Source: an uncultured Oscillospiraceae bacterium
GTDB taxonomy: Bacteria > Bacillota_A > Clostridia > Oscillospirales > Oscillospiraceae
Assembly: GCA_900754605.1 (NCBI GenBank)
Contig: CAAEDK010000209.1
Location: 1-25,167 of the forward strand
Length of the DNA: 25,167 bases
Direction of reading: 5' to 3'
Part shown: positions 233 to 19,550 of the stretch, piece by piece
Numbering within the stretch: the first letter of the stretch is position 1
Layout: the number at the start of each line of letters is the position of its first letter
Notes under the pieces: model-generated
What the model saw: only the letters and a program-made list of their open reading frames with translations
Databases searched by the model: none
Told to the model about the DNA's origin: nothing
Program-made: the position numbers and the translations under genes

Positions 233-868
233 TCACAATACAGCTGGTTCCAGTACATCCCGGGCAGCCAGGTTCATCACTGACACCTCAAAGGCCACCC
301 GTTCCTCCGTCCGATCCCCCAGATTTTTCGTATAGGTACGGCTCTGGAGACGGCCGTCAAAGCACAGTGTGCTACCCACCTCCATCCCGCCGCACTGGTG
401 GGCCAAGCTTCCCCAAGCAATGCAGGGGAGATAGTCTGCCCGGCCATAGCGCCGGTTTACTGCCAGGATCATATCACAAATGGTCCGGCCAAGGGGGGTA
501 GATCGGAGACTGGGCGGCTTACAAATCGTCCCAGACATAAACAGGTGGTTCTCGTCCTCCCCCTGCTCCAAAATCAGTTCTTTCGCAAATACGCTGATAA
601 TCAGCTTACTTCCAACGCCGGAGCGGTTGTTAAAGGTACGGACCTCACCACGAACCGTGACCTCCTCCCCTCGCTCCAGCCAGCCGCAGTTCTCCAGCAG
701 CGCCCGGGAGGTCACTACGTTCACTTGGTCGGCTGCCCCAGACAGTCGGCTGACCACCAGAGGAAAGGCAAAAAACTCCACATCATGGTTGCAGTGAGAG
801 AGCGCGGGTGGCTGGGCGACTCTGCCATGGAGGACCATCCGATTGACATCCGTCCCGGTCTGCTTCAT
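233..868 (-). CDS. SSB-like protein with two tandem OB-fold domains
   Basis: This 211-residue protein appears to hold two single-stranded-DNA-binding OB folds in tandem, roughly residues 9-100 and 106-200. Both halves show the SSB pattern: an opening strand (MVLHGRV; LFMSGTI), a central strand block (VNVVTSRALLENCGWLERGE; YLPCIAWGSLAHQCGGMEVG) and a following G-x-V/L-strand (VRGEVRTF; FDGRLQSRTY). It ends at LEPAVL with no acidic DDDIPF-type tail, so it lacks the usual SSB tip that recruits partner proteins. Its length exceeds an ordinary 150-180-residue SSB. The ATG at 868 has CAGGAG 11 bases upstream. It is likely a cytosolic ssDNA-binding accessory protein, not the main replication SSB. 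No confident promoter was found; it could be read from the DUF1294 gene 128 bp upstream. Confidence 0.75.
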   Translation of the reverse strand: MKQTGTDVNRMVLHGRVAQPPALSHCNHDVEFFAFPLVVSRLSGAADQVNVVTSRALLENCGWLERGEEVTVRGEVRTFNNRSGVGSKLIISVFAKELILEQGEDENHLFMSGTICKPPSLRSTPLGRTICDMILAVNRRYGRADYLPCIAWGSLAHQCGGMEVGSTLCFDGRLQSRTYTKNLGDRTEERVAFEVSVMNLAARDVLEPAVL

Positions 869-996
869 CCTATATCACACTCCTGATTCGTTTGTTCCCC
901 CTATCTATATGACGCCGCCCTCACCTGTATGTCCATTTTCTCCAGCGAGAAAGTACGTTTTGTTATATCGACCTTTAATATTACAAATTTACCCGT

Positions 997-1287
997 TTAT
1001 TTGGAAAAATACCACCATCCAAGCAGAGCCGCCAGCATAAGCTGTCCGATCAGCAAAGCAGGCATCCCGTATCGGAAATACCAGTGTTTTGTCTTATGGC
1101 GAAAGGTCCGCATTCCTGCAATGGAGCCTAAGCTCCCACCCAATACCGCCGGCAGAAACAGTGCCTTTTCTGAGATGCGCCACTGTCCCCACCTGGCCCT
1201 CCTCTTGTCTAGCCCCATCAGCAAAAAGCCGGCTAGATTGATCAGCAGCAGATAGCCAGCCAGCAGCTTCCACAATTCTATGTCCAC
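997..1287 (-). CDS. DUF1294 small membrane protein
   Basis: This 96-residue protein fits DUF1294: a first membrane helix (LLAGYLLLINLAGFLLMG), then the family signature DKRRARWGQWRISEKALFLP, then GGSLGSIAGMRTFRHKTKH and a C-terminal membrane helix. I chose the GTG at 1285-1287 as start because AGGAGG sits 7 bases before it. An out-of-frame ATG overlaps it, and the longer frame upstream runs into the 1322-1353 hairpin region. Its function is not known; it is probably an inner-membrane protein. It lies downstream of ilvD on the same strand, after the hairpin, and may be read from the ilvD promoter. Confidence 0.8.
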   Translation of the reverse strand: MDIELWKLLAGYLLLINLAGFLLMGLDKRRARWGQWRISEKALFLPAVLGGSLGSIAGMRTFRHKTKHWYFRYGMPALLIGQLMLAALLGWWYFSK

Positions 1288-1321
1288 ACATATCCCTCCT
1301 AAGGTCTGCAAAATGCTTACA

Positions 1322-1353
1322 GCCCCGAAGGCGGCATCTGCCGCCTCCGGGGC
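1322..1353 (-). terminator. Hairpin between ilvD and the DUF1294 gene (weak terminator or attenuating structure)
   Basis: GCCCCG-A-AGGCGGCA pairs with TGCCGCCT-C-CGGGGC around a 2-base centre, with one A/C mismatch. On the minus strand it follows the ilvD stop (1391) by 38 bases and precedes the DUF1294 start (1287). The stretch after it is only GTAAGCATTTTGC, a weak U-run, so partial termination is more likely than complete. Confidence 0.55.
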
Positions 1354-1390
1354 CTGCGCTCTATTCTGTATGGTTATCGCCAGTCTTCTT

Positions 1391-3052
1391 TTACTCCAGG
1401 ATGGCACCCCGGTCCGCAGAAGATACCAGCTTGGCATAGCGGGCCAGATAGCCCGTCTTGATCTTGGGCTCGGGGCACACCCAATTGGCACGGCGGGCAA
1501 CCAGTTCCTCGTCCGTCACCTTCAACGTAATGGTGCGGGCTGGGATATCAATGGAGATGAGGTCACCTTCCTCCACCAGACCAATGGTTCCGCCGGAGGC
1601 CGCCTCCGGAGAGACATGTCCGATGGACGCGCCGCGGGTAGCACCAGAGAATCGTCCGTCAGTAATCAGGGCCACGTCCTTATCCAGCCCCATGCCCGCA
1701 ATCGCAGAGGTGGGATTGAGCATCTCCCGCATCCCGGGCCCGCCCTTAGGGCCTTCATAGCGGATGACTACCACATCGCCGGCCACGATCTTGCCATCGT
1801 AGATGGCCTGGATAGCGTCATCCTCGCTGTTGAACACCCGGGCGGGTCCCTCATGGACCATCATCTCCGGGGCTACAGCAGACTGCTTGACCACACAGCC
1901 ATCTGGGGCCAGGTTGCCCTTCAGCACAGCGATGCCGCCGGTTTTGGAATAGGGCTTGTCCAGAGGCCGGATGATCTCCTCATCCCGGTTGACCACACCC
2001 TCCAGATTTTCTGCCACAGTCTTACCTGTGCAGGTAACTACTCCTGTATCCAGCAGACCAGCCTGGGCCAGTTCCGCCATCACTGCGTACACGCCGCCGG
2101 CCCGCTCCAGATCCTCCATGTAGGTGTCCCCGGCAGGGGCCAGGTGGCACAGGGTGGGGGTCTTGGCACTGATCTCGTTGGCCATATCGAAGGACAGCTC
2201 GATACCGCACTCATGGGCGATGGCAGGCAGGTGGAGCATGGTGTTGGTGGAGCAGCCCAGGGCCATATCCACCGTCTCGGCATTGTAGAAAGCTGCCTCG
2301 GTCATAATGTCCCGGGGCCGGATGTCCTTCTCCACCAGATCCATGATCTGCATTCCCGCATGCTTGGCCAGGCGCAGCCGGGCAGACCAGACAGCGGGGA
2401 TGGTCCCGTTCCCCCGCAGGCCCATGCCGATCGCCTCCGTCAGGCAGTTCATGGAGTTTGCAGTATACATCCCGGAGCAGGAGCCACAGGTGGGGCAGGC
2501 GTTGTTCTCATACTCCTCCAGGCCTTCCTCGTCCAGCTTGCCGGCATAATAGGCGCCCACGGCCTCAAACATATGGGAGAGACAGGTGCGGCGGCCATCA
2601 TTCATCGTGCCGGCCAGCATGGGTCCGCCGGAGACAAAGATGGTAGGAATGTTCACCCTGGCGGCAGCCATGAGCAGGCCGGGCACGTTCTTGTCACAGT
2701 TGGGGATCATCACCAGCCCGTCAAACTGGTGGGCCATCGCCATGGCCTCGGTGGAGTCGGCGATCAGGTCCCGGGTGACCAGAGAATATTTCATCCCCAC
2801 ATGACCCATAGCGATGCCGTCGCACACAGCGATGGCGGGGAACTCCACAGGGGTGCCTCCGGCAGCCCGGACGCCAGCCTTGACGGCCTCGGCAATCTTG
2901 TCCAGGTTCATGTGCCCGGGGACAATTTCATTATAAGAGCAGACCACACCGATAAGGGGGCGTTCCAGTTCCTCCCGGGTGTAGCCCAGGGCATAGAGCA
3001 AAGAGCGGTTAGGGGCGGCGGGAGCCCCTTTTTTCACAACGTCAGAGCGCAT
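1391..3052 (-). CDS. ilvD: Dihydroxy-acid dehydratase
   Basis: This 553-residue enzyme dehydrates 2,3-dihydroxy-isovalerate and 2,3-dihydroxy-3-methylvalerate, the third common step of valine/isoleucine synthesis. IlvD/Edd-family marks are clear: [10 protein letters not shown] (41-50), [10 protein letters not shown] with Cys119, and [15 protein letters not shown] with Cys186, Cys189 and Cys192, the likely Fe-S ligand region. The NEIVPGH form lacks the PCN cysteine of the oxygen-stable [2Fe-2S] class. That suggests the oxygen-sensitive [4Fe-4S] type, fitting an anaerobe (inference). The open frame extends 29 codons further, but ATG 3052 has AGGAGG 8 bases upstream and matches family length. 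It is the only branched-chain amino acid gene seen; its 5' leader (about 30 bases) is too short for a T-box. Confidence 0.97.
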
Positions 3053-3088
3053 AAGGCGGACCTCCTGAAAATCAGAATCTTGAGTCAT

Positions 3089-3117
3089 ATAGTATAACAC
3101 CCTGGCAGTCGTGTCAA
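3089..3117 (-). promoter_or_regulatory. Promoter of ilvD
   Basis: On the minus strand, TTGACA (3117-3112) is followed after 17 bases by TACTAT (3094-3089), or after 15 bases by TATACT (3096-3091). The -35 is a perfect consensus. Transcription would start near 3082, leaving about 30 bases before the ATG at 3052. Confidence 0.75.
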
Positions 3118-3161
3118 GGAAAGTCCGCATCCCTTTCAAAAAACGATGGTCTCATGCAGCC

Positions 3162-4196
3162 TTAGCCCCAGTGAGCCAGCGCGGCCCTCGCCATGCCATA
3201 GCCCAGGGTCATACACCCCGGAAATGTAGCCAGCCAGGCCAGCAGGATGGATCGGACCACCTGCCGGTCCGCGCCCCGCGGTCCTGCAGCCCCCACCCCC
3301 AACAGGGCTGCCGTTCTGGTGTGAGTGGTAGACACCGGGAGGCCCAGCAGAGTGGCCGCAAACAGACACAGGATACCTGCCAGATCGGCAGAAAATCCCT
3401 CCCGCGGACCCAGAGTAACCATCTCCCGGCCCACGGTGTCGATGATCCGCCGCCCCCCTATGGCAGTCCCTGCCGCCATGGTGGCGGCGCACAGCACCAT
3501 CAGCCAGAGCGGGACCCGGAGAATCTGGGCCTCCTGCCGCCCCTGGGCTAGGGCCGCCCCCAGAAGGAACACACCAATAAACTTCTGCCCATCCTGAGCC
3601 CCGTGGAAAAATGCGGTTCCTGCCGCCCCCGGGATCTGGCACAATCGGAACAGTTTTGGGGACAGGGGCCAGTTCCGGGTTATCCGCTCCGTCTGCCGTC
3701 CCGCCCACAGTCCGGCGGCCACGGACAGGATCAGCCCCAGCAGCACCGCCCCCCACCTCTGCCAGCGGATGCAGGCAAGGCTCCCCTCAAGAGCCACCGC
3801 TGCCCCCGACAGTCCTGCCGCCAAGGCGTGGCTCTCGCTGGTGGGGATCCCCCACCACCAGGCCGCCGCCGCCCACAAGACCACTGCTCCCATGGCGGCG
3901 CACAGGGCCAGGGAGGCCGCCTTGGGCCCACCGCCGAAGGCGGCAATGGAATAGATGGTCTCCACCACCGAAGGGTACGCAGACGTAACGCACAGCACCC
4001 CCAGAAAATTGCACACCGCAGCCAGGGCCACCGCCCCCCGGAAGGGCAGCCCTCCAGTGACCACCACCCCGGCGATGGCGTTGGGGGCATCTGTCCATCC
4101 GTTCACTACCAGCACCGCCAGAGTGAGGAGTACAGAGACCGTCAAGGCAGGGTTTTCCACCATCAGGGCTAAAAATGTGGAAAAAGAAGCAGGCAT
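3162..4196 (-). CDS. PiT-family inorganic phosphate transporter
   Basis: This 344-residue polytopic membrane protein belongs to the PHO4/PiT family, which brings in phosphate (or metal phosphate) with a coupling cation. Repeat-type signatures are present: VNGWTDAPNAIAG (31-43), the clostridial variant of GANDVANA; GIPTSESHALAAG (116-128); FHGAQDGQK (197-205) with Asp202; and LGLPVSTTHT (284-293) near the C-terminus. About 8-10 membrane helices are visible. Length is at the short end of the family. The ATG at 4196 has GAGGTG about 8 bases upstream. It starts 69 bases after the dinB stop with no clear promoter between, so co-transcription with dinB is possible. No DUF47/PhoU-like partner, often found next to PiT genes, is adjacent. 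Confidence 0.93.
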   Translation of the reverse strand: MPASFSTFLALMVENPALTVSVLLTLAVLVVNGWTDAPNAIAGVVVTGGLPFRGAVALAAVCNFLGVLCVTSAYPSVVETIYSIAAFGGGPKAASLALCAAMGAVVLWAAAAWWWGIPTSESHALAAGLSGAAVALEGSLACIRWQRWGAVLLGLILSVAAGLWAGRQTERITRNWPLSPKLFRLCQIPGAAGTAFFHGAQDGQKFIGVFLLGAALAQGRQEAQILRVPLWLMVLCAATMAAGTAIGGRRIIDTVGREMVTLGPREGFSADLAGILCLFAATLLGLPVSTTHTRTAALLGVGAAGPRGADRQVVRSILLAWLATFPGCMTLGYGMARAALAHWG

Positions 4197-4265
4197 GAAG
4201 CTTCACCTCATGCCCACTGTATGCGCTGCCCCCGCTGGATAGCCCAAAGTATAGAGACCGCTACG

Positions 4266-5513
4266 TCAATCCTCCTCGCTCCGCACCCCAGCGGGGGGAG
4301 GGGCATGCCGCTCCCGGGCTGCGTCCCGCGGCTCAGAGGCCATCCCGATGGCCCCTTGGCCGTATTTGGCCCGGATGGCGTCCGTAGTCCGGGCCAATCG
4401 CTCCAGACGCACCCGCCGCACCTCTTCATCGCTGGTAAACAGCGTTTGCTGCACAGCAGCCTCCTCCTCAGGAATAAGGGCAATGGCGGTAACTGTCAGG
4501 GCCCGCACTGGCCGTTCCATGCTCCAGCAGCTCTCCGCCAGCTCCATGGCCGCCCGGGCAATTTCCCGACCCAGGCAGGTAGGGATCTCCAGCCGCTTCT
4601 GTCGGCTCAGATCCCGGAAGTCCGGATCCCGGATTTGAAGGGCTACTCCGGTACACTTCATCCGGTGCCGCCTTAGACGGGCGGCCACCTGTCCGGCCAG
4701 CATCCCGACTCCAGCCTGGAACTCCTCCCAGCCCATCAGGTTCCGTGCAAAGGTGTTCCCGCTGCCCACCGACTTGGGTGGGGTATACCGCCCTGCTGGG
4801 GCCACTGGAGCCCGATCCAAACCGTTTGCGTAGTCGTGAAGCTGCGCTCCATGCCGGCCCAGCAGACGGAACAGGCTCTCCCGATTAAAATGAGCCAGAT
4901 CCCCGATGGTGCGGACACCGAATTTTCGCATGGTCTCTTCTGCTGCCCGGCCTACATACAGCAGATCCCCCACCGGCAGGGGCCAGACCAGCTGCCGGAA
5001 ATTCTCCCGAGTGATGCAAGTGGTAGCGTCCGGCTTTTTATAGTCACTGCCAAGCTTGGCAAATACCTTATTAAAGGAGACCCCTACCGAGATGGTCAGA
5101 CCGAACTCCTGACGCATCCGGCGGCGGATCTCATCAGCCAGAGCCGCAGGATTCCCCCCAAACAGATGGAGGGTTCCGGACACATCCAGCCAGCTTTCAT
5201 CAATGCCGAACGGCTCCACCAGATCGGTGTAGTCCTGGTACATCTGGTTGATCCGCCTGGAAAATTCCCGGTACACCCGGTGATGGGCCGGAAGAAGGAC
5301 CAGGTCGGGACATTTTCTCTTGGCCTGCCAGATGGTCTCCGCCGTCTGAACCTGGAACTTTTTAGCTGGCTCATTTTTAGCTAAGATGATCCCATGGCGG
5401 CTCTCCGGATCCCCGCACACCGCCACCGGAAGATGGCGCAGTTCCGGGTGATCCAGCAACTCCACCGAGGCATAAAAACTGTTCAGATCACAGTGAAAAA
5501 TGACCCGTTCCAT
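4266..5513 (-). CDS. dinB: DNA polymerase IV (Y-family translesion polymerase)
   Basis: This 415-residue protein is a Y-family DNA polymerase that copies past damaged bases. Visible: HCDLNSFYASVE with catalytic Asp9 and a likely steric-gate Tyr14; GIDESWLDVSG with Asp105-Glu106; the little-finger domain (about 240-350); and a C-terminal QQTLF (355-359), the beta-clamp-binding motif type. The frame opens 31 codons upstream, but ATG 5513 sits just before the catalytic strand and has GGGAGG 9 bases upstream. An in-frame ATG three codons earlier directly abuts that site and is unlikely. The C-terminal tail (EPRDAARERHAPPP) looks unstructured. It is transcribed divergently from the SPL-like radical SAM gene from a strong promoter with no evident LexA box. 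Confidence 0.96.
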   Translation of the reverse strand: MERVIFHCDLNSFYASVELLDHPELRHLPVAVCGDPESRHGIILAKNEPAKKFQVQTAETIWQAKRKCPDLVLLPAHHRVYREFSRRINQMYQDYTDLVEPFGIDESWLDVSGTLHLFGGNPAALADEIRRRMRQEFGLTISVGVSFNKVFAKLGSDYKKPDATTCITRENFRQLVWPLPVGDLLYVGRAAEETMRKFGVRTIGDLAHFNRESLFRLLGRHGAQLHDYANGLDRAPVAPAGRYTPPKSVGSGNTFARNLMGWEEFQAGVGMLAGQVAARLRRHRMKCTGVALQIRDPDFRDLSRQKRLEIPTCLGREIARAAMELAESCWSMERPVRALTVTAIALIPEEEAAVQQTLFTSDEEVRRVRLERLARTTDAIRAKYGQGAIGMASEPRDAARERHAPPPAGVRSEED

Positions 5514-5577
5514 AGTCCTCATCCTCCCCCTGCCCTGGAATCTGTCCTCGCCGCTGAGTTGTGCTGGTTCTGTTGAT

Positions 5578-5606
5578 ATTATATCCCCTCTCACCCAAGA
5601 AGTCAA
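5578..5606 (-). promoter_or_regulatory. Promoter of dinB
   Basis: On the minus strand, TTGACT (5606-5601), a 17-base spacer and a perfect TATAAT (5583-5578). The start would be near 5571, giving a leader of about 58 bases. No GAACnnnnGTTC-type SOS box is visible nearby. Confidence 0.85.
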
Positions 5607-5624
5607 ACGTCCGTTCTATTTTCA

Positions 5625-5653
5625 TTGACAACATCCACTTCCACTGATAGGAT
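5625..5653 (+). promoter_or_regulatory. Promoter of the SPL-like radical SAM gene
   Basis: TTGACA (5625-5630), a 17-base spacer and TAGGAT (5648-5653). The perfect -35 and correct spacing support it; the -10 matches 4 of 6. It stands 19 bases from the dinB promoter's -35, back to back. Confidence 0.65.
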
Positions 5654-5686
5654 AAAAGACAAGAACAGGAATTGAGAGGGAGTACG

Positions 5687-6577
5687 ATGGAATATATCTC
5701 TGCCAAGCGCATCCTGATTCGGAACAGGTCCACCGCCTGGTTCGGCACCGACCACACTATGAACCTGTACCGGGGCTGCTGCCACGGCTGCCTCTACTGC
5801 GACAGCCGCAGCGACTGCTACCGCATCCCGGACTTCGACCGGGTGACTGCCAAGGCGGACGCGCTGCGTCTGCTCCGGGACGAACTGGCCCGGAAGATCC
5901 GCCCAGCCTTCATCGGCATGGGCTCCATGAGCGACCCCTATAATCCCTTTGAGGAAGGGCTGCTCCTCACCCGCCACGCCCTGGAACTCATCGATGCCTA
6001 TGACTGCGGCGTGGCCGCCGCCACCAAAAGTGATCTGATCCTGCGGGATGCCGACCTGTACCGCTCCATCCAAACTCACTCCCCCGTCATCTGCAAGGTC
6101 ACCGTCACCACGGCAGATGAAGACCTGGCCTTCAAGGTGGAGCCCCACGCTCCCTCCCCGGCCCGGCGTCTGAAGGCAGTGGAGGGCCTGGCCCGGGCAG
6201 GGATCTTCTGCGGAGTGCTGCTCATGCCTGTACTCCCCTTTCTGGAGGACCAGCCGGAGCAGGTTCTGGAAGTGGTGGACCGAGCAGCGGACGCAGGGGC
6301 CCGGTTCATCTATCCCGGCTTCGGGGTGACCATGCGCCAGGGGCAGCGTGAGCATTTTCTTCGGCAACTGGACCTGGCCTTTCCTGACAAAGACCTCTCC
6401 AGGCGGTATCTGGCTCGGTACGGCAACCGGTACCAATGCCCCAGTCCCCGGGCGCGCCAACTGTGGGAGGTCTTTGCCCGCCGCTGTCAGGACCGAGGAC
6501 TGCTGTACCAGATGCCCCATATCATCTCTGCCGCTACCCGGGACTATGGGGACCGCCAGCTGAGCTTCTTCTCCTGA
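5687..6577 (+). CDS. SPL-family (SplB/COG1533-like) radical SAM protein
   Basis: This 296-residue protein carries the radical SAM cluster motif CX3CX2C at Cys31, Cys35 and Cys38 in NLYRGCCHGCLYCDSRSDCY. It is followed by a TIM-barrel-like run with GMGSMSDPYNPFE, CGVAAATKSDLILRD, VICKVTVTTADED and GVLLMPVLPFLED. The family is related to spore photoproduct lyase, which repairs a UV thymine dimer. Most members are uncharacterised, and this one lacks the longer N-terminal region of true SplB, so repair is not proven. ATG 5687 has GAGGGAG 4 bases upstream; a TTG five codons earlier is in frame but sits on the ribosome site. The head-to-head position with dinB suggests, but does not show, a DNA-damage role. 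Confidence 0.85.
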   Translation: MEYISAKRILIRNRSTAWFGTDHTMNLYRGCCHGCLYCDSRSDCYRIPDFDRVTAKADALRLLRDELARKIRPAFIGMGSMSDPYNPFEEGLLLTRHALELIDAYDCGVAAATKSDLILRDADLYRSIQTHSPVICKVTVTTADEDLAFKVEPHAPSPARRLKAVEGLARAGIFCGVLLMPVLPFLEDQPEQVLEVVDRAADAGARFIYPGFGVTMRQGQREHFLRQLDLAFPDKDLSRRYLARYGNRYQCPSPRARQLWEVFARRCQDRGLLYQMPHIISAATRDYGDRQLSFFS

Positions 6578-6601
6578 GCTATACGCCTGCATCGTTTGCT
6601 C

Positions 6602-6630
6602 TTTACGGCATCCATCCGGCATGGTATGAT
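6602..6630 (+). promoter_or_regulatory. Promoter of the rRNA uracil methyltransferase gene
   Basis: TTTACG (6602-6607), 17 bases, then TATGAT (6625-6630) preceded by TGG, which forms an extended -10. It lies in the 140-base gap after the radical SAM gene and about 85 bases before the next ATG. Confidence 0.65.
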
Positions 6631-6717
6631 AGAAACTGCAAAAACACATAGACAGCGGCCGCCTCCCTCTGCTCCATTTTGCGGAGGACACGGGGCCTGC
6701 CCAGGGAGGCACAGACA

Positions 6718-8082
6718 ATGACAGAATGGAAGAAAAACGCAGTCCACCCACTCCGCATCGAGGGCTATACAGCGGAGGGAATGGGAGTTGCTCGTCTGGA
6801 GGGCCGGGTGGTCTTTGTCCCCTTTACTGCCCAGGGAGAACTCTGGCGGGTTCGTTTGGAGAAGGTGCGCTCCCACATGGCCTGGGGCCGGGGGGTTGAG
6901 CTGTTGGAGCCCTCCCCGGAGCGGTCTGAACCAGACTGCCCTCTGTTTAGTCGATGCGGAGGCTGTCAGTTCCGGCACCTTACCTATGCTGAAGAACTTC
7001 GTGCCAAAGGCCAGCGTATTGCTGACGCTCTGGAGCGAGTGGGCGGGGTTCGGCTGGATCTGCCGCCAGTGCTGGGCGCGGAAGTGCCTGACCGCTACCG
7101 CAACAAAGTGCAGTTCCCCGTGGCCTCAGGCCGCCATGGCCCCACAGTGGGCTATTACCGCCCCAGAAGCCACGATGTGCTGGATGTAGCCGACTGCCTC
7201 CTTCAGCCAGAAATCGTCACTACCTTGCGTCGGGCCTTTCTGGGCTGGATGGAGGATTTTCACGTCCCACCCTATGAAGAGACGACCAACTCCGGCCTGA
7301 TCCGCCACCTGTATGTCCGCACCAATCAAGCTGGGGAGGCCTTGTGCTGTGTGGTCGCCAATGGGCGTTCCCTTCCCCATACTCAGGAACTGATCCGGCG
7401 GCTTCGCCAGGCCGTCCCCTCCCTGGCCGGGGTAGTGCTCAACCAAAATACCCGGGACACCAATGTGATCCTAGGACAGGACTATCACACCCTCTGGGGA
7501 AAAGATTTTCTGGAGGAGACCCTGTGCGGCATGACCTTCCGCTTATCTGTCCCCTCCTTTTTCCAAATCAATCGGGCGCAGACCGAGCGCTTGTATGCCA
7601 AAGCTCTGGACTTCGCAGGCCTCACAGGGACGGAGACTGTCCTGGATCTCTATTGCGGCATTGGTACGATTTCTCTCACTCTGGCCCAGCGGGCCGCCCA
7701 GGTCATCGGTGCAGAGATCGTCCCCCAGGCCATCGAGGATGCAAAAGCCAACGCTGCCCGGAACGGCGTGGACAATGTTCGCTTTCTCTGCGGTGATGCG
7801 GGACAGACTGCTGCACAGCTGGCCCGAGAAGGCATCCGTCCACAGGTGATCTGCGTGGATCCGCCCCGAAAGGGATTGGCGCCGGACGTGCCTGCGATTC
7901 TGGCCGGGATGTCCCCAGAACGCATTGTCTATGTCTCCTGCGACCCTGCCACCCTCGCCAGGGATGTAAAGCGTCTGGCAGAGCTGGGCTACCATACAAT
8001 CTGCGCCCAAGGAGTAGATCTGTTCCCCAGAACTTCCCATGTGGAGACGGTAGTCTTATTGTCCAAACTTGCCCCCATGTGA
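6718..8082 (+). CDS. rlmD: 23S rRNA (uracil-5-)-methyltransferase, RlmD/RumA (RlmCD) family
   Basis: This 454-residue enzyme transfers a methyl group from S-adenosylmethionine to C5 of a uracil in 23S rRNA (family role). The order of parts is an N-terminal TRAM RNA-binding domain (about 1-62), [4Fe-4S] cysteines Cys74, Cys80, Cys83 and Cys160, SAM-binding DLYCGIGTISL (310-320), DPPRKGL (381-387), catalytic Cys408 in VYVSCDPATLARD and the base Glu443 in SHVETV. The open frame begins 13 codons earlier, but ATG 6718 has GGGAGG 8 bases upstream. In Gram-positive bacteria one enzyme can modify both U747 and U1939, so the exact target and symbol (rlmCD/rlmD) cannot be fixed from sequence. tRNA targets cannot be fully excluded, though the TRAM plus Fe-S layout favours rRNA. 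Confidence 0.92.
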   Translation: MTEWKKNAVHPLRIEGYTAEGMGVARLEGRVVFVPFTAQGELWRVRLEKVRSHMAWGRGVELLEPSPERSEPDCPLFSRCGGCQFRHLTYAEELRAKGQRIADALERVGGVRLDLPPVLGAEVPDRYRNKVQFPVASGRHGPTVGYYRPRSHDVLDVADCLLQPEIVTTLRRAFLGWMEDFHVPPYEETTNSGLIRHLYVRTNQAGEALCCVVANGRSLPHTQELIRRLRQAVPSLAGVVLNQNTRDTNVILGQDYHTLWGKDFLEETLCGMTFRLSVPSFFQINRAQTERLYAKALDFAGLTGTETVLDLYCGIGTISLTLAQRAAQVIGAEIVPQAIEDAKANAARNGVDNVRFLCGDAGQTAAQLAREGIRPQVICVDPPRKGLAPDVPAILAGMSPERIVYVSCDPATLARDVKRLAELGYHTICAQGVDLFPRTSHVETVVLLSKLAPM

Positions 8083-8165
8083 CTCTGCGTTCCTCTGTTC
8101 GTACTCTAATTCCAAAAAAGAAAAAGTATCCATCTCATAACAATCTTCACCCATCCAAGCAAAAG

Positions 8166-8205
8166 GCCAGGCTGGACGCCCCTCTAAGGGGCTGTCCAGC
8201 CTGGC
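8166..8205. terminator. Bidirectional terminator between rlmD-type gene and metG
   Basis: The 12-base stem GCCAGGCTGGAC/GTCCAGCCTGGC continues into an inner GCCCC/GGGGC stem with one bulged T and a 5-base loop. On the minus strand it is followed by CTTTT (end of the metG transcript) and on the plus strand by TTCCTT. It sits in the 184-base gap between convergent genes; I see nothing else there. Confidence 0.85.
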
Positions 8206-8266
8206 TTCCTTACGCCTATTGATAACGCGCCAATGCGTCAGATATGAAATTCTGCCGGAGGCTGCA

Positions 8267-10237
8267 TCAGCACAGCTTGGCCCCAGCTGGGATCTGATCG
8301 TCAAGCATCAGCAGGTTCAGCTTTTCCTCACCCTTCTCCGTGTGGACGGCAGAGAGCAGCATTCCGCAGCTCTCCTGGCCCATCATCTTCCGGGGAGGCA
8401 GATTGACAATGGCCACCAATGTCTTGCCCACCAGCTCCTCAGGCTTATACCAGGCCGCAATGCCAGAGAGGATCTGCCGGTCGGTCCCGGTTCCGTCATC
8501 CAGGGTAAAGCGCAGCAGCTTATTGGACTTTTTCACCGCCTGGCAGTCCTTTACCTTCACAGCCCGGAAGTCATTTTTGCAGAAAGTATCGAAGTCCACC
8601 TTCTCAGTGAGCTGAGGCTCTACCTCCAAGGCAGGAAGGGCAGCCTTGCGCGCCTCCTGAGCGGCCTGCTCCAGCGCCTCCAACTCCTTCTCGGCATCGA
8701 TGCGGGGGAACAGGTTGTCTCCCCGGACCACAGTGGCATCCCTGCGGAGAGAGCCGAACTGTCCAGCGCTCTCCCAAGTCGAGCAGTCCTCACAGGCGCC
8801 GATTTGGCGCAGGATCTCAGCGGAGGAATTGGGGATAAAGGGGATCAGCAGGACAGCGCATACCCGCAGAGTCTCCAGCAGATGGTACATGACGCCGGCC
8901 AGACGGGCCCCGTTGGCCTCCATGTCCTTCGCCAGAACCCAGGGGGTATTCTCGTCGATATACTTGTTGGCCCGGGAAATGACCTTGAAGATCTCCGCCA
9001 GGGCATTCTGGAAGGCGTAGTGCTCCATCTGCTCCTCATAGCGGCCCCGGAGGCCGGAGACCAGCTCCTCCAGCTCCTGATCCTTCTCCGGGTCGCCGGC
9101 CTGCTCAGCAGGCAGAGTGCCGCCGAAATATTTGCCCACCATGGACACAGTGCGGCTGAGCAGATTGCCCAGGTCGTTGGCCAGGTCCACGTTGATGGTG
9201 TTGATGAGGGACTCATTGGAGAAGTTACCGTCCGAGCCGAAGGGGAAGGTGCGCAGCAGGAAGAAGCGCAGGGCGTCCACGCCGAAGTGCTCCGCCAGCA
9301 GATAGGGGTCCACCACGTTGCCCTTGGACTTGGACATCTTGCCGCCGTCCAACAGCAGCCATCCATGTCCGAACACCTTTTTAGGCAAAGGCATCTCCAT
9401 ACTCATCAGCATGGCAGGCCAGATGATGGAGTGGAAGCGGACGATCTCCTTGCCTACAAAGTGGACGTCAGCAGGCCAGAATTTCTCATAGTCATCATAT
9501 TTGTCATTCAGGAAGCCCAGAGCAGTAGTGTAGTTGAACAGGGCATCCACCCACACATAGACCACATGGCCCGGGTCAAAATCCACAGGCACACCCCAGG
9601 TAAAGCTGGTGCGGGAGACGCACAAATCCTCCAGGCCGGGCTTGATGAAGTTGTTCACCATCTCGTTCACCCGGGAGCGGGGCTCCAGGAAGTCGGTGTC
9701 CTCCAGAAGATGCTGGATTTTGTCGGCATACTTGGACAGGCGGAAGAAGTAGGCCTCCTCCTCTGCATCCTGTACCGGGCGGCCGCAGTCAGGGCACTTG
9801 CCATCCACCAGCTGAGACTCTGTCCAGAAGGACTCGCAGGGCTTACAGTATTTGCCCACATACTTGCCCTTGTAGATGTCGCCCTTCTCGTACATCTTCT
9901 TGAAAATCTTCTGGATTGAGGCCACATGGTAGTCATCCGTGGTGCGGATAAAGCGATCATTGGAAATGTTCATCAGCTTCCAAAGATCCTTAACTCCCTT
10001 GGGACCCTCAACGATGTTGTCCACAAACTCCTTGGGCGTGACGCCGGCCTCCTTAGCCTTGTCCTCGATCTTCTGACCGTGCTCGTCAGTACCAGTAAGG
10101 AACAACACATCGCAGCCGGTCAGCCGCTTATAGCGGGCCATGGCGTCCGTGGCCACAGTGCAGTAAGTGTGGCCAATGTGCAGCTTGTCGCTGGGATAGT
10201 AGATGGGGGTTGTGATATAAAACTTCTTTCGTTCCAT
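8267..10237 (-). CDS. metG: Methionyl-tRNA synthetase
   Basis: This 656-residue class I synthetase charges tRNA-Met with methionine, including the initiator. Visible: the HIGH motif (20-23), the zinc knuckle Cys131/Cys134 and Cys148/Cys151, the tryptophan-containing FNYTTALGFLND region, KMSKS (300-304), a helical anticodon-binding domain (about 370-520) and a C-terminal EMAPII/Trbp111-type OB domain (about 550-656, KVKDCQAVKKSNKLLRFTLD) used for dimerisation and tRNA binding. Length is normal for this form. ATG 10237 has GGGAGGA about 9 bases upstream. The stop of the 276-aa membrane gene is only 43 bases upstream, so it is probably the last gene of the mnmA operon. No T-box leader or S-box is visible. 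Confidence 0.98.
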   Translation of the reverse strand: MERKKFYITTPIYYPSDKLHIGHTYCTVATDAMARYKRLTGCDVLFLTGTDEHGQKIEDKAKEAGVTPKEFVDNIVEGPKGVKDLWKLMNISNDRFIRTTDDYHVASIQKIFKKMYEKGDIYKGKYVGKYCKPCESFWTESQLVDGKCPDCGRPVQDAEEEAYFFRLSKYADKIQHLLEDTDFLEPRSRVNEMVNNFIKPGLEDLCVSRTSFTWGVPVDFDPGHVVYVWVDALFNYTTALGFLNDKYDDYEKFWPADVHFVGKEIVRFHSIIWPAMLMSMEMPLPKKVFGHGWLLLDGGKMSKSKGNVVDPYLLAEHFGVDALRFFLLRTFPFGSDGNFSNESLINTINVDLANDLGNLLSRTVSMVGKYFGGTLPAEQAGDPEKDQELEELVSGLRGRYEEQMEHYAFQNALAEIFKVISRANKYIDENTPWVLAKDMEANGARLAGVMYHLLETLRVCAVLLIPFIPNSSAEILRQIGACEDCSTWESAGQFGSLRRDATVVRGDNLFPRIDAEKELEALEQAAQEARKAALPALEVEPQLTEKVDFDTFCKNDFRAVKVKDCQAVKKSNKLLRFTLDDGTGTDRQILSGIAAWYKPEELVGKTLVAIVNLPPRKMMGQESCGMLLSAVHTEKGEEKLNLLMLDDQIPAGAKLC

Positions 10238-15770: not shown

Positions 15771-15799
15771 TGGACAGAAGGGTCTCAGTTGAGTATGAT
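15771..15799 (+). promoter_or_regulatory. Promoter of the Rnf-like operon
   Basis: TGGACA (15771-15776), a 17-base spacer and TATGAT (15794-15799). The start would be near 15806, leaving a leader of about 70 bases that contains the 15831-15857 hairpin. No Rex-type TTGTTAAnnnnTTAACAA site is visible. Confidence 0.65.
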
Positions 15800-15877: not shown

Positions 15878-17203
15878 ATGCGGCGAAGATATTTGGGCGG
15901 GGTACACCCCGCTTCCTATAAAGAAAGCACCAGGCGCAAACCGATCGTCCCTCTGGAGGAGGTGCCTAAACAGGTGATCATTCCTCTAACTATGTGCAGT
16001 GGCGGCGGAGCAGTCCCTGTGGTCCGCCCTGGTGACACAGTGACGGCAGGACAGATCATCGCCGAGCCGGAAGGCAACGGCGTCTATGTTCATTCCAGCG
16101 TCTCTGGCCAGGTGCGCGCCATTGAGCCAAGGCCTCATCCCTGGGGCGGGAGCTGGGATGCCATCGTCATCGAGAATGATGGAAAGGACACCCCCTGCCC
16201 CGATCTTCCTAAGCCCATAGATTGGTCTAGGATGGATCGAAGCGAGGCTCTGGACCGGATCTGCCGTGCCGGGATCACCAGCATGGGCGGCGGCGCCAGC
16301 CCCACCCATTTACGCCTGCGCCAGGCAGTTGGCCGGGTGGACACCCTGATCGTCAATGCCGCCGAGTGCGAACCCTATCTGACCGCCGACCACCGGCTTC
16401 TGCTGGAGAAAGGGGATCAGGTCCTCCAGGGTGTGCAGATGATGGCCCGGCTGCTCCGGGTAGATCGGGCTGTACTGGTGGTAGCCGGAGACAAACTCAA
16501 TGCGGTGGAATTTTTGGAGCACCGCCTTCGGAGGAAGAAGCGGGCAGTCGAGCTGCTCACCATTCAGACCCGTTACCCTCTTGGCATGGAGAAACAGCTG
16601 ATCCGCACTGTGACCGGACGGGAGGTGCCGCCGGGCCAGTCGGCGCTGGATGTGAAATGCTCCGTATTCAATGTGGCCACAGTATATATGGTGCGCTCTG
16701 CCCTGATGAAGGGGAGTCCCCTGACTCACCGGGCAGTAACGGTAAGCGGAGGTGCGGTGGCCCGCCCCCGGAACCTATGGGTTCCGATCGGAACTCCTCT
16801 GCACTGCCTGCTGGAGTCGGCCGGCGGCCTGCGGGAGGAGCCCGCAGTCATTCTCACTGGCGGCCCCATGACCGGGACGGTACAGGGAAATCTGGATGCC
16901 CCAGTGGTAAAGAACACCAACGCACTGCTGTGCCTCACAGATCAGGAGCACAACTCCGCCAACCAAACGGAGACGGTGTGTGTCCGCTGCGGCCACTGTG
17001 TCTCCAGCTGTCCTATGAATCTGAATCCAGTATCGGTCTATCGTGCTATGCGGATGGGCGAGCGCGAGCGGCTCCCGGAACTTCATCTGGAGGATTGCAT
17101 GGAGTGCGGCTGCTGCTCCTATATCTGTCCCTCTCATATCCCCCTGGCGGATCTGGTCCGCCAGGCCAGACAGCTCCCAAGGGAAGGAGGAGAGCAGGAA
17201 TGA
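15878..17203 (+). CDS. rnfC: RnfC-like electron-transport subunit (NADH-side iron-sulfur flavoprotein)
   Basis: This 441-residue protein matches RnfC, the peripheral subunit that in Rnf complexes exchanges electrons with NADH through FMN and [4Fe-4S] clusters. Visible: GGVHPASYKE at the N-terminus; a barrel-sandwich region (about 30-100); the SMGGGASPTH loop (135-144) and VNAAECEPYL (159-168) of the FMN/NADH domain; and two cluster motifs, Cys368/371/374/378 and Cys407/410/413/417, each CX2CX2CX3CP. Length is normal for a clostridial RnfC. ATG 15878 has GGGAGG 5 bases upstream. The stop overlaps the next start (ATGA), so rnfC and the rnfD-rnfG fusion are translationally coupled. Confidence 0.93.
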   Translation: MRRRYLGGVHPASYKESTRRKPIVPLEEVPKQVIIPLTMCSGGGAVPVVRPGDTVTAGQIIAEPEGNGVYVHSSVSGQVRAIEPRPHPWGGSWDAIVIENDGKDTPCPDLPKPIDWSRMDRSEALDRICRAGITSMGGGASPTHLRLRQAVGRVDTLIVNAAECEPYLTADHRLLLEKGDQVLQGVQMMARLLRVDRAVLVVAGDKLNAVEFLEHRLRRKKRAVELLTIQTRYPLGMEKQLIRTVTGREVPPGQSALDVKCSVFNVATVYMVRSALMKGSPLTHRAVTVSGGAVARPRNLWVPIGTPLHCLLESAGGLREEPAVILTGGPMTGTVQGNLDAPVVKNTNALLCLTDQEHNSANQTETVCVRCGHCVSSCPMNLNPVSVYRAMRMGERERLPELHLEDCMECGCCSYICPSHIPLADLVRQARQLPREGGEQE

Positions 17204-18861
17204 GTCAGAACGGACCTGTGATCCGCCGGTCATCCCCGCAGATCGCCCAAGTATCCAGCATCTCCTCCACAATGCTGGATGTCATCGTAGCCCTGCTTCC
17301 CGCTTTAGGTATGGCAGTCTATCTGTTCGGTCCCCGGGTATTGACTCTGACAATGGTATCAATAGCATCCTGTATGGGTGCGGAATACAGCTACCGCCGA
17401 CTGATGGGATTGAGCAATACGGTAGGCGATTTGTCCGCCTGCGTCACCGGCCTGCTATTGGCTATGAGCCTTCCAGTAACTGCGCCCTACTGGGCTCCTG
17501 TGCTGGGCGGCATCTTTGCCATTGTGGTGGTCAAGCAGTTTTATGGCGGACTGGGCCGAAACTTTATGAACCCCGCCTTGGCTGGTCGAGCGCTTCTGTG
17601 TACCTTTCCCGGCCTGATGACTACCTGGGTAGATGCGTTTCAGCAGACCCCATTGTTTGGTGCAGTAGACGCAGTCTCCTCTCCCACCCCCATGGCCCTG
17701 CTTCATTCCGGAGCGCTGCCTGATCTGACCCTGAGCCAGCTGATGTTGGGACAGCACGGGGGTGCCATGGGAGGGGCACCGGTATTCATGCTTCTGCTGG
17801 GCGGGGTGTACCTGGTGGGGCGCCGTGTGATCTCCCCCCGAATTCCTCTGTCCTACCTTGGAACAGTGGCCTTGCTCACCTTGCTCTTTCCCCGTGGAGA
17901 CGGGGGTGCATTGGCCTGGATGACCGCCCAGCTGTGCAGCGGCGGACTGGTACTGGGCGCAGTGTTCATGGCTTCTGACTACACCACGACCCCAGTTACC
18001 CCGGTGGGGCAGACCCTGTTTGGGGTCGGCTGCGGACTGCTGACGGTGTTGCTGCGCTATTTCGGTTCCTACCCCGATGGGGTTGGCTGGGCCATCCTCA
18101 CCATGAACTGCTGTGTTTGGCTGCTGGATCGTGCCGCCCTTCCCCGCCGCTTTGGCGTGGGCCGCTTTGAGGCAGCACGGAGCTGGATGGAGCACCTGCG
18201 CGTCAGTGCTTCGGCCATCCATTTTATCCCCCCCAAGATGAAGTTCCTGGCTCGTGCTGGAGACGGAACAATGCCCGGCGAGGGCTACCTGGACGAGCTG
18301 CGGGGCACTGTACGGCAACTGGGCGCTTTAGCCGCAGTATTTGCTGTGACTTGCGGCGTGGTGTTTGGAGTCCATCGAATGACTGATTACGCCGCTGTCC
18401 GGGCGGAGACCTCAGCTCAGCAGACCCTGTTGGCTCAGGTCATGCCTCAGGCTACTGTCCGTTCTGAGACTCCATATCGCGCCCCTGGCGCATTGAGTAT
18501 CTCAGCCGGTTACAATGATGGCGGACTAGTTGGCTACTGTGTAGAGGTTCAAGCCAACGGCTTCGGCGGTGTACTCACCGCGGTGGTGGGCGTCAACACC
18601 AACGGCGAAGTCACTGGTGTGGCAGTAACTAATCACCGGGAAACCACTGGCGTTGGCACACAGGCCATGGAAAGCGGCTACCTCAGCCAGTACGCCGGAC
18701 GCTCCGGTACCATCCGTTCCTCCGGCAGTAATGCAGTGGAGGCAGTATCCGGTGCAACCGCTACATCAGAAGCGGTTACTGCCTGTGTGAACCGGGCTCT
18801 GGCCATTGTAGCCAGCCTAGATACAGAGGGAGAAGTGGACTATGTTGACGGCGAAGTCTAA
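17200..18861 (+). CDS. RnfD-RnfG fusion protein (membrane flavoprotein)
   Basis: One 553-residue frame carries two Rnf subunits. Residues about 1-335 are RnfD/NqrB-like: many membrane helices, QFYGGLGRNFMNPALAGRA (113-131), VDAVSSPTPM (156-165) where Thr163 fits the covalent FMN site, and MASDYTTTPVTPVGQTLFG (257-275). After a polar linker with HFIPPKMKFL comes a new membrane helix (about 373-392) and an RnfG/NqrC-like FMN-binding domain (about 420-540): GYNDGGLVGYCVEV, TGVAVTNHRETTGVGTQ and the flavinylation motif SGATAT (517-522, Thr520). In most organisms these are separate genes. The start is ATG 17200, overlapping the rnfC stop by ATGA; a much longer open frame upstream overlaps rnfC and is not real. 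No stop, frameshift or start signal is visible at the junction. ApbE, the flavin transferase needed, is not in the window. Confidence 0.92.
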   Translation: MSQNGPVIRRSSPQIAQVSSISSTMLDVIVALLPALGMAVYLFGPRVLTLTMVSIASCMGAEYSYRRLMGLSNTVGDLSACVTGLLLAMSLPVTAPYWAPVLGGIFAIVVVKQFYGGLGRNFMNPALAGRALLCTFPGLMTTWVDAFQQTPLFGAVDAVSSPTPMALLHSGALPDLTLSQLMLGQHGGAMGGAPVFMLLLGGVYLVGRRVISPRIPLSYLGTVALLTLLFPRGDGGALAWMTAQLCSGGLVLGAVFMASDYTTTPVTPVGQTLFGVGCGLLTVLLRYFGSYPDGVGWAILTMNCCVWLLDRAALPRRFGVGRFEAARSWMEHLRVSASAIHFIPPKMKFLARAGDGTMPGEGYLDELRGTVRQLGALAAVFAVTCGVVFGVHRMTDYAAVRAETSAQQTLLAQVMPQATVRSETPYRAPGALSISAGYNDGGLVGYCVEVQANGFGGVLTAVVGVNTNGEVTGVAVTNHRETTGVGTQAMESGYLSQYAGRSGTIRSSGSNAVEAVSGATATSEAVTACVNRALAIVASLDTEGEVDYVDGEV

Positions 18862-18891
18862 CTGGAATCAACAGAACGGAGGCAGCCAAAC

Positions 18892-19476
18892 ATGACGGCA
18901 ATTCATCTGGCAGGGATCGCTTTGGCGGCCCTGCTGTCAGAAAACTTTATTTTGGTCAGTTGTCTGGGGATCGGATCCCGCACTCAGGCCTTTCGGGATC
19001 CTCTGGACGCCTGGCGTACTGGTTACAGCCTGACGGCAGTGATGGTGGTCACTGCGCTGGTCGCCTGGGTGGTGAACCAGCTTTTGCGGCATTTCGCTTT
19101 GAGCTATTTTCAGACACTCGCCTTCGCTTTGACTGGCCCCCTGGTGGTGGCTGGCCTGCGGTACATTCTCCGGACCTGTGTACCTGAGTTATCCCGGCGG
19201 ATGGATGTGAATTTAGCCTCGATCACCTCCAACTGTGCTGCCATGGGCACAGCGCTGCTCATTGCCCAGCGGGGATATGGTCCAGGCGGAGCACTCCTCT
19301 ATGCCCTGTTTGGCGGGATAGGTGCTACAGTGGCTATGATGTGCTTTGCCGGTCTGCGTCGGGAAGTCAGTTTGACCAGCTGCCCACGATGCTTTCAAGG
19401 ACTTCCCATCAACTTGATCACGGTCGGGCTGATGGCCTTGTCCTTGGTGGGCTTTTATGGACTTCATCTAAACTGA
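18892..19476 (+). CDS. rnfA: RnfA-like membrane subunit
   Basis: This 194-residue protein has about six membrane helices and aligns along its length with RnfA/RsxA: ENFILVSCLGIG (17-28), SYFQTLAFAL (71-80), SITSNCAAMGTALL (110-123), GGIGATVAMMCFAGLRREV (141-159) and NLITVGLMALSLVGFYGL (174-191). It is RnfA rather than RnfE by length and C-terminus. In Rnf, RnfA and RnfE together hold a [2Fe-2S] cluster within the membrane, using an LGxC cysteine and a TNC cysteine from each. Here Cys115 is the TNC cysteine, but the LGxC position is Gly28; Cys24 lies one helix turn before. ATG 18892 has GGAGG 9 bases upstream, 30 bases after the fusion gene. It ends 15 bases before a strong terminator, and no rnfE or rnfB follows. 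Confidence 0.9.
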   Translation: MTAIHLAGIALAALLSENFILVSCLGIGSRTQAFRDPLDAWRTGYSLTAVMVVTALVAWVVNQLLRHFALSYFQTLAFALTGPLVVAGLRYILRTCVPELSRRMDVNLASITSNCAAMGTALLIAQRGYGPGGALLYALFGGIGATVAMMCFAGLRREVSLTSCPRCFQGLPINLITVGLMALSLVGFYGLHLN

Positions 19477-19490
19477 TCGAATTCACCAGC

Positions 19491-19529
19491 AACAGCTCCT
19501 GGAAGCAAATCATTCCAGGAGCTGTTTTT
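19491..19529 (+). terminator. Rho-independent terminator of the Rnf-like operon
   Basis: A 14-base perfect stem (AACAGCTCCTGGAA/TTCCAGGAGCTGTT) with an 8-base loop is followed directly by a T-run to 19529. It starts 15 bases after the rnfA stop and marks the operon end. Confidence 0.93.
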
Positions 19530-19550
19530 CTGCATATCCGCCAGTATATC

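What the first reader, a model, noticed from the sequence alone, without database searches (positions are those of the whole stretch)
15878..19476. Compact Rnf-like operon: rnfC, rnfD-rnfG fusion, rnfA, with no rnfE or rnfB
Seen: three genes in tight order (ATGA overlap, then a 30-base gap) with their own promoter and a strong terminator directly after rnfA. Known: the Rnf ion pump uses C, D, G, E, A and B; B takes ferredoxin electrons and A/E together hold a [2Fe-2S] cluster. Inferred: without E and B this may be a reduced NADH-to-membrane-flavin electron-transfer system, perhaps feeding an outside acceptor, rather than ferredoxin:NAD oxidoreductase. It is the strongest candidate for an undescribed system here.
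Basis: partly seen in the sequence, partly recalled or inferred. Interest (0 to 1): 0.75.

Follow-up and report, generated by a model that had tools for sequence, protein, structure and literature searches.

The report
Half-Rnf operon missing its ferredoxin limb
Some gut bacteria related to Flavonifractor carry, besides a normal Rnf ion-pump complex, a stripped-down second version that has lost the ferredoxin-side electron path but kept the NADH-to-outer-flavin path, which suggests an electron outlet made from half of a known pump.

Summary
In detail: rnfC, an rnfD-rnfG fusion and an rnfA-like gene form a tight operon with no rnfE or rnfB. It is conserved: 47 of 49 loci from one genome scan carry C-DG-A, and 56 of 61 genomes of a genus-level group carry the compact rnfA. 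All 16 relatives examined also hold a separate complete rnfCDGEAB operon, so it is a paralogue. Tree and gene neighbourhood derive it from a second complete Rnf lineage ("Y"), with B-less sister operons as likely intermediates. The compact RnfA lost one of four invariant cysteines that hold the intramembrane [2Fe-2S] cluster (Gly in 49 of 49 distinct copies; Cys in 45 of 45 operons with full RnfB), while the other limb keeps its motifs: eight RnfC cysteines in 48 of 48, FMN threonines of D and G in 49 of 49. Best reading: a half-Rnf, NADH -> RnfC -> RnfD -> outward RnfG, with the ferredoxin/RnfB/[2Fe-2S] limb removed. Two genomes with B-less sisters have no detectable RnfB, which argues against borrowing. 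Direction, acceptor and ion pumping are inferred. An inverted RnfA homodimer is not supported. I found no description in the open-licence papers searched.

The parts
15771..15799 (+). promoter-like site ahead of rnfC (weak evidence)
   Evidence: consensus scan 10 of 12; 4 sites found against 1.5 expected
15878..17203 (+). rnfC: NADH/FMN domain, SLBB, two [4Fe-4S] motifs
   Evidence: TIGR01945 434 bits; PF01512, PF13375, PF10531; 7zc6_C E 2e-97
16979..17131 (+). two CxxCxxCxxxC motifs of RnfC; all 8 cysteines kept in 48 of 48 distinct compact copies
17200..18861 (+). rnfD-rnfG fusion (553 aa): RnfD about residues 10-319, linker, RnfG helix and FMN domain about 373-540
   Evidence: PF03116 and PF04205; 7zc6_D and 7zc6_G by sequence and by fold of a low-confidence model
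17686..17688 (+). RnfD flavinylation threonine Thr163 (motif SSPT); Thr in 49 of 49 distinct compact copies
   Evidence: role by homology
18757..18759 (+). RnfG flavinylation threonine Thr520 (motif SGAT); Thr in 49 of 49 distinct compact copies
   Evidence: role by homology
18892..19476 (+). rnfA-like gene (194 aa), single, no rnfE partner
   Evidence: PF02508 88 bits; TIGR01943 117 bits, below cut-off 229; fold of a low-confidence model matches RnfA/NqrE
18973..18975 (+). Gly28 at the place of the invariant RnfA cluster cysteine (Cys25 in C. tetanomorphum)
   Evidence: Gly in 49 of 49 distinct compact copies, Cys in 45 of 45 operons with full RnfB; no Cys in 58 of 58 distinct copies with the later loci added
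19234..19236 (+). Cys115, the second RnfA cluster cysteine, retained
   Evidence: 58 of 58 distinct copies
19381..19383 (+). Cys164, cysteine of the CP motif, conserved in the compact family
   Evidence: 57 of 58 distinct copies; 18 of 18
19492..19530 (+). intrinsic terminator directly after rnfA
   Evidence: 13-pair hairpin with U-tract, z -6.5

Best explanation
The operon encodes a half-Rnf. Shown by sequence: it is a conserved paralogue, nearest to a complete Rnf lineage (Y), without rnfB and rnfE, with one [2Fe-2S] ligand of RnfA gone and rnfD fused to rnfG, while the cofactor motifs of the NADH limb are kept. Inferred: RnfC oxidises NADH (FMN, two [4Fe-4S]) and passes electrons to the flavins of RnfD, which carry them across the membrane to the covalent FMN of the fused RnfG on the outer face, from where an unidentified extracytoplasmic acceptor takes them. 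Flow in the opposite direction is possible. RnfA no longer conducts electrons and serves as a scaffold for RnfD and the RnfG helix.
For: C-DG-A in 47 of 47 loci L001-L047, three of them cut within or before rnfC by a contig end, and in 9 further distinct loci (duplicates found). dN/dS 0.04-0.12. Cysteine contrast: with full RnfB 45 of 45 keep the RnfA cysteine; without it 56 of 58 distinct operons lack it. Motifs of the kept limb: 48 of 48, 49 of 49, 49 of 49. Tree of C+D (51 operons chosen by me): compact is one clade (SH-aLRT 99), next B-less L156 (95), then L149 and L158 (96), all within lineage Y. Synteny: complete L155 and B-less L149 share both flanking genes; 22 of 49 distinct compact loci have the same 3' gene within about 510 bp. 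G043 and G046, which hold L156 and L158, have no PF04060 match and only one PF02508 pair, no TIGR01944 match over cut-off and one FMN_bind match each. Independent case G195: RnfB without its FeS domain, the RnfA cysteine lost, a divergent neighbouring protein with two FMN_bind domains, and 42 FMN_bind matches in the genome.
Against: No acceptor is known: in 14 of 16 compact genomes PF04205 matches only the two Rnf proteins, and the neighbouring genes I could name are housekeeping ones. L138 has no RnfB in its operon and no TIGR01944 match over cut-off in its genome G048, yet keeps all four cysteines. L049, a gammaproteobacterial contig, has a 200-residue RnfB but no cysteine at the RnfA site; I had counted it as lacking full RnfB. 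On the tree only 5 independent pairs exist: 4 agree, 0 oppose, 1 shows no difference, p 0.125, which cannot reach 0.05. Two RnfC glutamates vary slightly (46 and 44 of 47). Structure models are low confidence (pLDDT 64-65).
Confidence: 0.62

Rival explanations
1. C-DG-A assembles with RnfE and RnfB of the resident complete Rnf into a hybrid, full ferredoxin:NAD oxidoreductase.
For: A complete Rnf is present in 16 of 16 relatives; 53 of the 56 compact-bearing genomes show a further RnfA match (96-121 bits), which I take as canonical.
Against: The RnfA cluster cysteine is absent in 58 of 58 distinct copies. The resident Rnf is lineage X (about 34% identity in C, 41% in D) whereas the compact operon is nearest to lineage Y. 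B-less sister systems stand without any detected RnfB in G043 and G046.
Confidence: 0.12
2. A reduced NADH-driven ion pump: RnfD still couples electron transfer to Na+ or H+ movement, with an outer acceptor of higher potential than ferredoxin.
For: RnfD is well conserved (TIGR01946 270 bits). RnfA, whose last helix contacts a helix of RnfD that may line the Na+ path (PMC9588780, passages), is kept under selection.
Against: The alternating-access switch described for RnfA-RnfE is thought to depend on their [2Fe-2S] cluster (PMC12174285 section 14), which cannot form as known here.
Confidence: 0.15
3. RnfA alone forms an inverted, dual-topology homodimer that rebuilds a cluster site from four cysteines.
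For: RnfA and RnfE arose from one gene and sit inverted (PMC12174285 section 14). Cys24 lies four residues before Gly28 in 45 of 49 distinct copies.
Against: Positive charge bias is strongly one-sided: mean in-minus-out +8.3 in 50 compact rows (one duplicate) against +6.7 in 45 canonical ones, with helix ends set by me and the N-out orientation of RnfA recalled. Cys24 is Ser in 4 of 49 and Pro in L163.
Confidence: 0.04
4. A decaying remnant without function.
For: Stepwise gene loss.
Against: dN/dS 0.04-0.12, cofactor motifs kept, intact compact RnfA in 56 of 61 genomes of the group.
Confidence: 0.04

Closest known systems
Rnf complex (RnfABCDGE), ferredoxin:NAD+ oxidoreductase
   Same: RnfC, RnfD and RnfG homologous over nearly full length with their cofactor motifs; RnfA fold
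   Different: no RnfB, no RnfE, RnfA lacks one invariant cluster cysteine, D and G fused
Na+-NQR
   Same: proposed to stem from a duplicated rnf operon that lost rnfB (PMC4014512, passages)
   Different: NQR keeps both RnfA/RnfE-type subunits and the cluster, gained NqrF, and its NqrA carries no redox cofactor (PMC12174285 sections 12 and 14); here subunit C keeps its Fe-S motifs and no NqrF lies in the operon
NQR/RNF-like flavinylated systems of Meheust et al. 2021 (PMC8238504, passages)
   Same: single electron path from NAD(P)H to an extracytosolic FMN domain
   Different: those fuse RnfD/NqrB to an NqrF-type PF00175 domain; here electrons would enter through RnfC. That survey required RnfB to call RNF, so a C-DG-A operon meets neither definition

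Membership tests
Rnf complex | RnfB, the ferredoxin-oxidising subunit, in the complex | tested here: not met
   none in the operon; the single PF04060 match of each of 16 relatives sits in the separate complete operon; the window's own genome is not held
Rnf complex | RnfA/RnfE heterodimer with four cysteines for [2Fe-2S] | tested here: not met
   no RnfE in the operon; no Cys at the RnfA Cys25 site in 58 of 58 distinct copies
Rnf complex | RnfC with NADH/FMN domain and two [4Fe-4S] motifs | tested here: met
Rnf complex | RnfD and RnfG with covalent FMN sites | tested here: met
   sequence motifs only, 49 of 49 each
Rnf complex | ferredoxin:NAD+ activity with ion transport | not testable with these tools
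   needs biochemistry
Na+-NQR | NqrF (FAD, [2Fe-2S]) and cofactor-free NqrA | tested here: not met
   no NqrF gene in the operon (genomes not searched for it); subunit C scores 434 bits as RnfC against 26-64 with the NqrA models and keeps 8 Fe-S cysteines
NQR/RNF-like system (PMC8238504) | PF03116 domain fused to PF00175 | tested here: not met
   DG carries PF03116 and PF04205 only

The most novel reading that the evidence does not exclude
A second evolutionary exit from Rnf besides Na+-NQR: after rnfB was lost, the complex became a one-way NADH-to-outer-face flavin conduit, the four-cysteine intramembrane cluster was dismantled, and RnfA was turned from half of an electron gate into a scaffold, with intermediate steps still readable in living relatives.
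Probability: 0.5. Interest if true: 0.82.

Novelty: new variant of a known kind. Interest (0 to 1): 0.7.

Why it matters
Rnf and NQR move electrons out across the membrane by one limb and back by another. A natural complex with only the second limb would let the two be studied apart, test whether pumping needs the [2Fe-2S] gate, and bear on the proposal that NQR arose through loss of rnfB from a duplicated rnf operon. It also points to an NADH outlet in gut bacteria for which I found no description.

Tried and rejected
Dual-topology RnfA homodimer: rejected on charge bias. Compact-only genomes in the family: the intermediate-scoring hits that I followed turned out to be canonical RnfA of lineage Y. 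A partner gene in the neighbourhood: none that suggests a function; one uncharacterised membrane-protein gene recurs on the 3' side. A viral-contig scan with the single RnfA sequence gave nothing. Rfam gave nothing at gathering score. Structure models of A and DG were low confidence and served only for fold class. One search returned the same genomes as and added nothing.

Mended while checking: one search showed that L143 is the same locus as L007, L172 the same as L005, and L169 the same as L037, so the counts (50 compact rows, 59 operons without full RnfB, 49 of 49 and 50 of 50) are given here as distinct copies (49, 58, 48 of 48 and 49 of 49). In one search the column of the second RnfA cysteine was misplaced; one search used the right one. 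'Full RnfB' means over 100 bits with my own profile, starting within its first five positions; L150 counts as full although its frame ends after 126 residues; without it the figure is 44 of 44. In one search I left out L160 and set L150 to full by hand.
Full report
What is there. Three genes lie in tight order: rnfC (15878-17203), an rnfD-rnfG fusion (17200-18861, ATGA overlap) and an rnfA-like gene (18892-19476) after a 30-base gap. RnfC and the RnfD part pass the NCBIfam cut-offs; the RnfG part (62 bits, cut-off 102) and RnfA (117, cut-off 229) do not, so the last two have diverged. A strong hairpin follows rnfA; by eye one with a changed stem sequence follows rnfA in the relative L001 (sequence printed). 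The promoter claim rests on one consensus site.

It is conserved and under selection. A profile of the compact RnfA, turned into exact peptide patterns, found 49 loci in genome contigs, one genome for each of 84,980 species. Of these 47 carry C-DG-A, three of them cut within or before rnfC by the contig end; the other two (L048, L049) are different Rnf operons. The record titles of the 47 name Oscillospiraceae or genera such as Pseudoflavonifractor, Flavonifractor, Lawsonibacter, Flintibacter and Colidextribacter, or only Clostridiales, Clostridium, Firmicutes, Bacillota or uncultured bacterium. In a genus-level group of 61 genomes I count 56 with an intact compact RnfA: 50 at 256 bits or more, and 6 at 185-203 bits, which all proved to be C-DG-A when fetched. 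The other five genomes have only a match of about 111 bits (three) or a fragment (two). In 200 genomes drawn from the family it appears in 4, by scores over 300 bits. dN/dS is 0.04-0.06 against L001 and 0.11-0.12 against L003 for the three genes.

It is a paralogue. In 16 of 16 relatives PF02508 matches exactly three times (canonical RnfE, canonical RnfA, compact RnfA) and PF04060 once, beside canonical RnfA; the fetched operons read C-D-G-E-A-B. The window's own genome is not held. Completeness of the assemblies is not told.

Where it came from. Other members of the family have a second complete Rnf lineage, which I call Y. The compact proteins resemble Y (C 38-49%, D 48-60%) more than the resident lineage X (C about 34%, D about 41%). 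A tree of C+D from 51 operons that I chose places compact as one clade (SH-aLRT 99), next to B-less L156 (95) and then L149 and L158 (96), all within Y; the root is at the midpoint and support is SH-aLRT only. Gene neighbourhood agrees: complete L155 and B-less L149 share a gene that I read as acetolactate synthase on the 5' side and a gene for a 303-residue membrane protein on the 3' side; the latter follows the compact operon within about 510 bp in 22 of 49 distinct loci, many of the rest being cut by contig ends or rearranged, the window among those without it. The order read from this is loss of rnfB first, with change of RnfA cluster cysteines, then loss of rnfE and D-G fusion. D-G fusion alone is not diagnostic: L160 has it in an operon with E and A.

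What was lost and what was kept. In C. tetanomorphum Rnf, Cys25 and Cys113 of RnfA and Cys26 and Cys109 of RnfE form a metal site in a region called strictly conserved in Rnf and Nqr (PMC9588780, passages); a later review describes it as a [2Fe-2S] cluster that takes electrons from RnfB and hands them to RnfG (PMC12174285 section 14). Over 103 distinct operons, 45 with full RnfB all keep the RnfA Cys25 equivalent; of 58 without, 56 lack it. The two exceptions are L138 and L160; L160 is cut by a contig end behind rnfA, so its rnfB is unknown. The 58 comprise 49 compact, L049, and L048, L138, L149, L156, L157, L158, L159 and L160. L152 has full RnfB and lacks one RnfE cysteine. L049 has a 200-residue RnfB that my threshold did not pass. 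Correcting for kinship leaves 5 independent pairs, 4 in agreement, 0 against, 1 tied, p 0.125. With nine further distinct loci added, none of 58 compact copies has a cysteine at the site, and all 58 keep the second cysteine. In contrast the eight RnfC cysteines are kept in 48 of 48 distinct compact copies, and the FMN threonines of RnfD and RnfG in 49 of 49 each.

Could it borrow the missing parts? G043 and G046, which hold the B-less sisters L156 and L158, have no PF04060 match and only one PF02508 pair, no TIGR01944 match over cut-off and one FMN_bind match. So these relatives, if they work, do so without a detected RnfB. Borrowing of canonical RnfE by the compact RnfA is not excluded but could not rebuild the known cluster site. 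An inverted RnfA homodimer is not supported by the charge bias.

Mechanism. Most likely NADH gives electrons to RnfC, then RnfD, then the outward FMN of RnfG, where an unknown acceptor takes them. In the independently altered G195 the Rnf lies beside a divergent gene for an 835-residue protein with two FMN_bind domains, which by inspection looks like a FAD-dependent reductase, and the genome has 42 FMN_bind matches; this fits an outward feed there. In 14 of 16 compact genomes PF04205 matches only the two Rnf proteins, so their acceptor is open.

Literature. Passages of PMC8238504 show that RNF was called there by presence of RnfB and NQR/RNF-like by PF03116 with PF00175, so this operon fits neither. 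Passages of PMC4014512 propose that NQR arose after rnf duplication and rnfB loss. Of PMC12174285 I saw the outline with abstract, sections 12 and 14, and one search for six terms without hits. In searches no listed title or abstract start describes an RnfB-less or C-DG-A system; several lists were capped (15 of 259, 20 of 84, 12 of 79, 10 of 20 shown), and only open-licence PMC papers are held. The labels lineage X, lineage Y and half-Rnf are mine.

Noticed in passing
L157 (G195:C60:38500-51000): An Rnf operon whose RnfB lacks the N-terminal FeS domain and whose RnfA lacks the cluster cysteine, divergent to an 835-residue protein with two FMN_bind domains, in a genome with 42 FMN_bind matches.
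   Followed up: partly
L149 (G175:C1:602000-611000): A C-D-E-A operon with no rnfG or rnfB found, RnfA lacking both cluster cysteines, in a genome with a second, more complete Rnf whose rnfB frame ends after 126 residues.
   Followed up: partly
L159 (G129:C29:57000-68000): A C-D-G-E-A operon without rnfB that branches near lineage X; RnfA lacks both cluster cysteines and RnfE one; no PF04060 match in the genome.
   Followed up: partly
L048: An rnf operon with a 915-residue RnfG that has several FMN domains, no rnfB found on the stretch, and Ser at the RnfA cysteine site.
   Followed up: no
window 19533 and 8051-8862: Against L001 the window is collinear up to just behind the rnfA terminator; there L001 continues with what is window 243-8051, a rearrangement breakpoint.
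   Followed up: no
L171 and L172/L005 (G235): One genome assembly carries two different compact operons on two contigs; a mixed bin is possible.
   Followed up: no
L160 (G122:C101): An rnfD-rnfG fusion in an operon that still has rnfE and a cysteine-complete rnfA.
   Followed up: no
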